This document shows positions 6,653 to 7,387 of a stretch of 64,000 nt of DNA, in pieces. Both the position numbers and the translations under genes were made by a program. The notes under the pieces were generated by a model, which was not told the origin of the DNA, did no database searches, and worked only from the letters and a program-made list of their open reading frames with translations. The DNA comes from Chloroflexota bacterium (GTDB lineage: Bacteria > Chloroflexota > Anaerolineae > J102). The stretch lies in the NCBI GenBank assembly GCA_029782215.1, contig JAKOVD010000098.1:124001-188000 (forward strand), in the 5' to 3' direction. Position 1 is the first letter of the stretch; every line of letters starts with the position of its first letter.

Positions 6653-7387
6653 CTACTTCTGCGGCGCCGAGAGGTCGCCCTGGGTCTGCCAGAAGGACGA
6701 GGTCAGGCCGAGCTGCCGGAAGATCTCCTGGACCTGGGCGGCCGTGCGGCCGTGGTACTCAGGGGAAAGGCGGTTGTGATACCAGAGCTGGGAGAGCTCC
6801 CAAAGCCTGGGAAGAGCCAGGACCTCGCCGCGGGCGACGCCGCGCTGCTCGCACCATGCATCGACGGCCTCTTCCGACCGGAAGAGCAAAATGGTCGCTC
6901 AGGTGAAGACCATGTCGTCGTACCAGTTGTCGAAGGGTACGACGAAGTGCGCCACGGCGCCGTCCCCGTGGAGCTGGCCGTCCCGGACGGACAGCAGCAG
7001 TGGCTCGCCGCCTCCGGAGTCGGTCGCCTCGATGAGGGCGTCGGCATGCAGGGCGGCGGGGATGCCAAGCGCGTCCCAGGCGCAGTTGGCCCAGTAGCTC
7101 CGCCCCAGGACCTCGACCCGGAAGCCCGTGGGCACGGCCGAGAAGGGGTTGGCGATGCGGATGTCCGTGGTGCCGGGCTCCAGGAAGAAGGCGTGCCGCC
7201 CATCCAGCTCGTGATAAAGGGCTGTGGCCTCGTCAACGCCGATCTGGAACCGTGCCGCCGTGTCAGCCACCGTGGGGGGCTGTGAGGCGGCGGCGAAGGT
7301 CTGGTAGACAAAAGCGCGGACATCCCAAAGGAGAGACTCCTCGAGGGCATCCGCTTGCGGGTTCTCAGGAGAGCCGGTGTTGGACAT
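6653..7387 (-). CDS. Putative selenocysteine-containing MerB-like (alkylmercury lyase family) protein; in-frame TGA at complement(6899..6901) read as Sec
   Basis: ORFs 6899..7387 and 6653..6889 are in the same frame, separated only by TGA. Upstream half has the MerB catalytic block ANCAWDALGIPAAL (CxxD); downstream half continues the MerB C-terminus (FRSEEAVDAWCEQRGVARGEVLALPRLWELSQLWYHNRL). Confidence 0.78.
6869..6886 (-). promoter_or_regulatory. Candidate bacterial SECIS hairpin
   Basis: Minus strand CTCTTCC-GGTC-GGAAGAG: perfect 7-bp stem, GGUC loop, stem begins 12 nt and loop 19 nt after the in-frame UGA. Confidence 0.72.

What the first reader, a model, noticed from the sequence alone, without database searches (positions are those of the whole stretch)
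6653..7387. Probable selenocysteine-containing MerB-like organometal lyase
Seen: two ORFs in the same frame on the minus strand are separated by a single TGA (complement 6899..6901); the joined product is 244 residues with Sec at 163 (...DNWYDDMVFT-U-ATILLFRSEEAVDAW...). Established: MerB uses Cys96, Asp99 and Cys159. The first half carries CAWDALGIPAAL, matching CALDTLIFPAL around Cys96/Asp99 of R831b MerB, and by my by-eye alignment the TGA falls on Cys159 (FCCHVHFF versus FTUATILLF). The residue swapped is therefore the catalytic thiol. I recall, unverified, that Sec-containing MerB-like proteins have been noted in organometal-related neighbourhoods elsewhere. The context here (a secreted FnIII-like protein and a hypothetical, with no transporter) looks different.
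Basis: partly seen in the sequence, partly recalled or inferred. Interest (0 to 1): 0.92.

Follow-up and report, generated by a model that had tools for sequence, protein, structure and literature searches.

The report
Selenocysteine-containing MerB-like lyase family
This gene encodes a relative of the mercury-detoxifying enzyme MerB in which one of the two catalytic cysteines is selenocysteine, read from an internal UGA codon; it belongs to a widespread, apparently uncatalogued family in several phyla, some of whose relatives carry selenocysteine at both catalytic positions.

Summary
The minus-strand frame 6656-7387 (stop 6653-6655) has one in-frame TGA at 6899-6901, giving 244 aa with Sec163. 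It matches Pfam MerB across the TGA (E 1.4e-28), and its AlphaFold model (pLDDT 93) has MerB structures as its 11 best PDB hits. C102, D105 and U163 fall on MerB Cys96, Asp99 and Cys159. The genome has SelA, SelB, SelD and tRNA-Sec. A hairpin with a GGUC loop lies 19 nt after the UGA; its loop codons are the most synonymously constrained in the gene, and its stem shows compensatory changes. In 116 homologues, TGA occurs only at the two catalytic-cysteine columns: 65 sequences at Cys159 and 11, in two independent lineages, at both Cys96 and Cys159. Cys159 is otherwise Cys, except in one Trp variant that has also lost Cys96. The protein is neither canonical MerB nor SaoL by NCBIfam cut-offs, has no mer or SAO context, and the genome has no clear MerA, so carbon-metal cleavage is likely but the substrate is unknown. 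Verdict: real selenoprotein, new variant of a known kind. The double-Sec active site is the most novel part.

The parts
6656..7387 (-). MerB-like selenoprotein CDS, 244 aa with Sec163 (stop TAG 6653-6655)
   Evidence: PF03243 E 1.4e-28; AlphaFold pLDDT 93.2; 11 best PDB matches all MerB
6899..6901 (-). UGA codon read as selenocysteine 163, at the MerB Cys159 position
   Evidence: aligned with Cys159 of solved MerB; TGA in every close homologue
6869..6886 (-). bSECIS-like hairpin CUCUUCC-GGUC-GGAAGAG; loop GGUC at 6876-6879, 19 nt after the UGA
   Evidence: loop GGUC in 73 of 76, compensatory pairs, extreme synonymous constraint
7082..7084 (-). codon of Cys102, equivalent of MerB Cys96 (motif NCAWD)
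   Evidence: (invariant column C102)
7073..7075 (-). codon of Asp105, equivalent of MerB Asp99
   Evidence: (invariant column D105)
7396..8631 (-). upstream neighbour, secreted FnIII-like protein; 8 nt before the start codon, possibly co-transcribed, but not a conserved neighbour
6097..6606 (-). downstream neighbour, weak GrpB-like match below cut-off; not a conserved neighbour

Best explanation
The gene encodes a stand-alone MerB-fold lyase in which the catalytic thiol Cys159 is a selenocysteine. Sec is inserted at UGA 6899-6901 by the host SelA/SelB/SelD/tRNA-Sec machinery, directed by a bSECIS hairpin with a GGUC loop 19 nt downstream (shown by comparative evidence, not by experiment). The enzyme keeps the MerB triad as Cys102/Asp105/Sec163. 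By analogy with MerB (inferred), one chalcogenolate captures the metal of an organometal, the other passes a proton to Asp105, and Asp105 protonates the leaving carbon. Sec, with its lower pKa and higher affinity for soft metals, would be the ionised nucleophile and metal ligand. Whether the natural substrate is methylmercury, another organomercurial or another soft-metal or metalloid compound is not known. About 0.97 for Sec insertion, 0.95 for the MerB-type active site, 0.65 for carbon-metal cleavage as the reaction.
For: MerB homology across the TGA; U aligned with Cys159 of MerB and MerB2; AlphaFold model with MerB as the only significant fold matches. Sel genes: tRNA-Sec, SelB (9), SelA (10), SelD, itself with an in-frame TGA (17). 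TGA in all 36 GTDB homologues that cover the site and confined to the Cys96 and Cys159 columns in 116 sequences. F-R-S codons over the hairpin loop are TTC 51/51, CGG or AGG 51/51 and TCG 49/49, the three most constrained codons in the gene. Pairs: 92% formed, 4 of 7 with double changes, 0 of 500 shuffles as high for covariation. GGUC kept in 73 of 76, including a lineage with closing pair U-A and residues W-S instead of R-S (61). SelA in 20 of 21 Sec-MerB Chloroflexota genomes but 0 of 4 with the Cys orthologue, and in 33 of 34 Sec-MerB GTDB genomes. Mechanism of MerB: PMC4525700.
Against: No experiment. The window hairpin alone does not fold better than shuffles (z -0.31); the SECIS case rests on comparison. 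No mer or SAO genes among the neighbours examined, no conserved neighbourhood, and no MerA over cut-off in the genome, so the organometal substrate is not supported by context. MerB Cys117 is Asp here. SelA is common in these phyla anyway (331 of 399 Chloroflexota), and one Acidobacteriota genome with a Cys orthologue has SelA (G766).
Confidence: 0.82

Rival explanations
1. A pseudogene or sequencing error: a nonsense mutation splits an ordinary MerB gene.
For: A stop codon inside the frame is all that annotation software would see.
Against: The same TGA at the same codon in dozens of independent assemblies from Chloroflexota, Acidobacteriota, Gemmatimonadota and Pseudomonadota, with conserved sequence after it and no other stop.
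Confidence: 0.01
2. UGA is read as tryptophan or another residue (genetic code variant or readthrough), not Sec.
For: One homologue (L159) has TGG, Trp, at the position.
Against: The Sec machinery is present. SelA and SelB frames hold no TGA. Cys is the alternative residue in the orthologues, and L159 has also lost Cys96, so it looks like a non-catalytic form. A selected bSECIS hairpin follows the UGA.
Confidence: 0.02
3. A true Sec MerB-fold protein whose work is not organometal cleavage: a soft-metal or metalloid scavenger or carrier, or a lyase for a non-metal substrate.
For: Stand-alone gene with no MerA, transporter or regulator. Scores far below the MerB and SaoL equivalog cut-offs. Cys117 replaced. 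Sec binds Hg very tightly (general knowledge), which may slow turnover and suit a scavenger.
Against: Asp99 is kept in 64 of the 65 single-Sec sequences; a mere metal binder would not need the proton shuttle. Both catalytic positions are lost together in the one non-Sec, non-Cys form (L159).
Confidence: 0.3

Closest known systems
MerB, organomercurial (alkylmercury) lyase, PF03243, NF009710/NF033555; PDB 3F0O, 5C17 (MerB2)
   Same: Fold, Cys96 and Asp99 equivalents, position of the second catalytic residue
   Different: Sec instead of Cys159; Asp instead of Cys117; 28-33 bits against equivalog cut-offs of 193-200; 244 aa with longer ends; no mer operon
SaoL, MerB-like organometallic lyase selenoprotein of the SAO system (NF040728; Haft and Gwadz 2023, listed in PMC13188914)
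   Same: A MerB-like selenoprotein. The SaoL model ends at the column of the Sec here (L097 match), so its Sec is probably at or next to the same position
   Different: 31 bits against a cut-off of 140; no SAO genes found nearby; found in Chloroflexota, Acidobacteriota, Gemmatimonadota and Pseudomonadota; relatives with two Sec
E. coli fdhF-type bSECIS
   Same: Short stem with GGUC in the apical loop at a similar distance from UGA (E. coli detail from general knowledge; consensus rules in PMC13188914)
   Different: Different stem sequence; tetraloop with 7-bp stem

Membership tests
Pfam PF03243 (MerB superfamily) | Profile match over the curated cut-off | tested here: met
   99.9 bits against 27; fold confirmed
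Canonical MerB (organomercurial lyase) | Equivalog cut-off NF009710 / NF033555 | tested here: not met
   33.4 against 193 and 28.7 against 200 bits
Canonical MerB (organomercurial lyase) | Cys96 and Asp99 | tested here: met
   C102 and D105 aligned
Canonical MerB (organomercurial lyase) | Cys159 | tested here: not met
   Sec (TGA) at the aligned position
Canonical MerB (organomercurial lyase) | Cys117 (signature used in PMC8261052) | tested here: not met
   Asp123 aligns with it in the alignment
Canonical MerB (organomercurial lyase) | Cleaves organomercurials | not testable with these tools
   Needs an assay
SaoL (SAO system) | Equivalog cut-off NF040728 | tested here: not met
   31.2 against 140 bits
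SaoL (SAO system) | Neighbouring Sao genes (ABC transporter, SaoB, SaoC, SaoT, SaoX) | tested here: not met
   Nearest neighbours are FnIII-like, GrpB-like, hydrolase and methyltransferase; no conserved neighbourhood in the family
Bacterial selenoprotein | SelA, SelB, SelD and tRNA-Sec in the genome | tested here: met
Bacterial selenoprotein | bSECIS: G in the first two loop positions followed by G or U, loop 16-37 nt after UGA (PMC13188914) | tested here: met
   GGUC loop 19 nt after UGA; constraint and covariation
Bacterial selenoprotein | Cys homologues at the Sec position | tested here: met
   L111, L112, L115, L116, L122, L156, L170 and Ralstonia, Paraburkholderia and Sphingomonas copies
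Bacterial selenoprotein | Sec detected in the protein | not testable with these tools
   Needs 75Se labelling or mass spectrometry

The most novel reading that the evidence does not exclude
MerB-fold enzymes have replaced their catalytic thiols with selenols on a large scale, and at least twice independently both of them. Relatives of the window protein in Chloroflexota and Acidobacteriota (L098, L100-L103, L099, L162-L166) have UGA exactly at Cys96 and Cys159, giving an all-selenol metal site.
Probability: 0.88. Interest if true: 0.78.

Novelty: new variant of a known kind. Interest (0 to 1): 0.72.

Why it matters
A survey of MerB genes (PMC8261052) screened for Cys at 96, 117 and 159, so Sec forms, which standard gene calling truncates at the UGA, would be missed; organometal-lyase counts in Chloroflexota, Acidobacteriota and Gemmatimonadota may be well too low. 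Sec at a soft-metal site raises a testable question: does a selenolate speed carbon-mercury cleavage, or does the stronger Hg-Se bond trap the product? The double-Sec forms give that experiment a natural series: Cys/Cys, Cys/Sec, Sec/Sec.

Tried and rejected
Single-sequence RNA folding of the SECIS region: not distinguished from shuffles. Rfam: no SECIS match. Conserved operon: none outside Gemmatimonadota; none for the double-Sec forms. MerA in the genome: only related flavoproteins below cut-off. SaoL membership: rejected by score. SelA co-occurrence as stand-alone proof: weak, because SelA is common in both phyla; the Sec against Cys contrast in Chloroflexota is the useful part. Haft and Gwadz 2023 and Haft and Tolstoy 2025 are not in the library, so prior description there cannot be excluded; NCBIfam 20.0 has no model that reaches its cut-off.

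Full report
Observation. The minus-strand frame from ATG 7387 holds one TGA, at 6899-6901, and runs on to TAG 6653-6655; read through, it gives 244 residues with U163. The coordinates in the finding are right.

What the protein is. Pfam MerB (PF03243) matches residues 82-203, straight across the TGA, with E 1.4e-28. phmmer against the PDB aligns the Sec with the catalytic Cys of MerB2 (5c17, E 1.4e-9) and, weakly, with the first Cys of FC(C/S)HVHFF, that is Cys159, of R831b MerB. AlphaFold on 28 aligned relatives gives pLDDT 93.2 and pTM 0.89; the 11 best structures in the PDB are all MerB, and the next is not significant. Cys96 and Asp99 correspond to C102 and D105, invariant in the aligned relatives. 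Cys117 of the published MerB signature (PMC8261052) is Asp here.

Can the cell make selenocysteine? The genome (98.6% complete, 5.4% contamination) has tRNA-Sec over the Rfam cut-off, confirmed by ARAGORN with anticodon UCA, SelB, SelA and SelD, which itself carries one in-frame TGA. They lie on four contigs other than the window's. SelA is the rule in the same class, so contamination is an unlikely source.

Recurrence. A scan of GTDB genomes gave 38 homologues; all 36 that cover the position have TGA there. PF03243 in 399 Chloroflexota and 396 Acidobacteriota genomes added many more. In an alignment of 116 MerB-like sequences, TGA occurs only in the Cys96 and Cys159 columns: 65 sequences with Sec at Cys159 and Cys at 96, 11 with Sec at both, 40 with none. 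In those with none the Cys159 column is Cys in all but L159 (Trp, with Ser at Cys96) and a truncated row.

SECIS. A hairpin CUCUUCC-GGUC-GGAAGAG begins 12 nt after the UGA and its loop 19 nt after it, within the published bSECIS rules (PMC13188914). Alone it is unremarkable (z -0.31). Comparison makes the case. Folding against synonymous shuffles of each gene gives mean z -0.96 over 57 sequences. The three codons spanning the loop are TTC 51/51, CGG 49 plus AGG 2, and TCG 49/49, by far the strongest synonymous constraint in the gene. GGUC is kept in 73 of 76 loops, and four of the seven pairs form in 76 of 76. On 28 diverse sequences, 4 of 7 pairs show changes on both sides, and no shuffle in 500 reaches the covariation score. 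The second double-Sec lineage keeps GGUC with a U-A closing pair and encodes W-S instead of R-S, so there it is the RNA rather than the protein that is conserved.

Sec against Cys. In Chloroflexota, 20 of 21 genomes with a Sec MerB have SelA (the exception is 84% complete), while 0 of 4 genomes with the close Cys orthologue do (three of these four are one family). 33 of 34 GTDB genomes with the gene have SelA over cut-off. In Acidobacteriota 16 of 17 Sec genomes have it; of two Cys genomes one lacks it; background 15 of 20. The tree puts the window protein in a well-supported clade of 72 (99/91), 64 with Sec, and shows two separate double-Sec lineages. Cys homologues occur on Ralstonia, Paraburkholderia and Sphingomonas replicons.

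Context. Upstream is a secreted FnIII-like protein, downstream a short protein with a weak GrpB match. Neither is conserved next to the gene elsewhere. Only in Gemmatimonadota is there a recurring partner, a DoxX-like membrane protein about 12 nt upstream (named from its sequence by eye, not by a profile). The window gene is the only MerB homologue in the genome, and no MerA passes its cut-off. So this is neither a mer nor an SAO locus.

Mechanism. In MerB, one of Cys96/Cys159 binds the metal as thiolate, the other passes its proton to Asp99, which protonates the carbon (PMC4525700). Sec163 with Cys102 and Asp105 can run the same scheme with a selenolate that is ionised at neutral pH. That step is inferred. 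The strong metal-selenium bond makes product release the open question, and a scavenger role remains possible.

Known or new. MerB-like selenoproteins are catalogued, as SaoL of the SAO system and as 'alkylmercury lyase MerB-like' (PMC9312934, PMC13188914), with one Sec. The SaoL model ends at the column of the Sec here, so the same position may be used. The window protein scores 31 bits against the SaoL cut-off of 140, so it is not SaoL. I found no description of this stand-alone family or of double-Sec forms, but two key papers were not readable.

Noticed in passing
L098, L100, L101, L102 (Chloroflexota G355, G137); L099, L103 (G011, G337); L162-L166 (Acidobacteriota): MerB-like genes with two in-frame TGAs, at Cys96 and Cys159, in two independent lineages; the Cys159 UGA has the GGUC hairpin, the Cys96 UGA has other, less clear downstream hairpins.
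   Followed up: partly
L166 (G635:C19), selA at about 231471-232814 of the contig: A double-Sec MerB gene lies beside a second selA copy, with a 567-aa ORF after it that may be selB; not seen at the other double-Sec loci.
   Followed up: partly
L159 (G599:C12): A homologue with TGG (Trp) at the Sec position and Ser at the Cys96 position, in a genome that has SelA: apparently a non-catalytic form.
   Followed up: partly
L095 (G066): A canonical-like MerB (128 bits to NF009710) with Sec at Cys159 followed by Cys160 (LUCKIYYF): another separate Cys-to-Sec change.
   Followed up: partly
L016 (G000:C50:41487-42425): SelD of the same genome also carries one in-frame TGA, so it is probably a selenoprotein too.
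   Followed up: no
L049-L054, Gemmatimonadota and related loci, about 12 nt upstream of the Sec MerB gene: Recurring DoxX-like small membrane protein next to the gene, a possible functional partner in that phylum.
   Followed up: no
window 3696-5144 (-): A protein with the look of a cobalamin-binding radical SAM enzyme (motif CNYQCRFC) near the gene; not tested as a partner.
   Followed up: no
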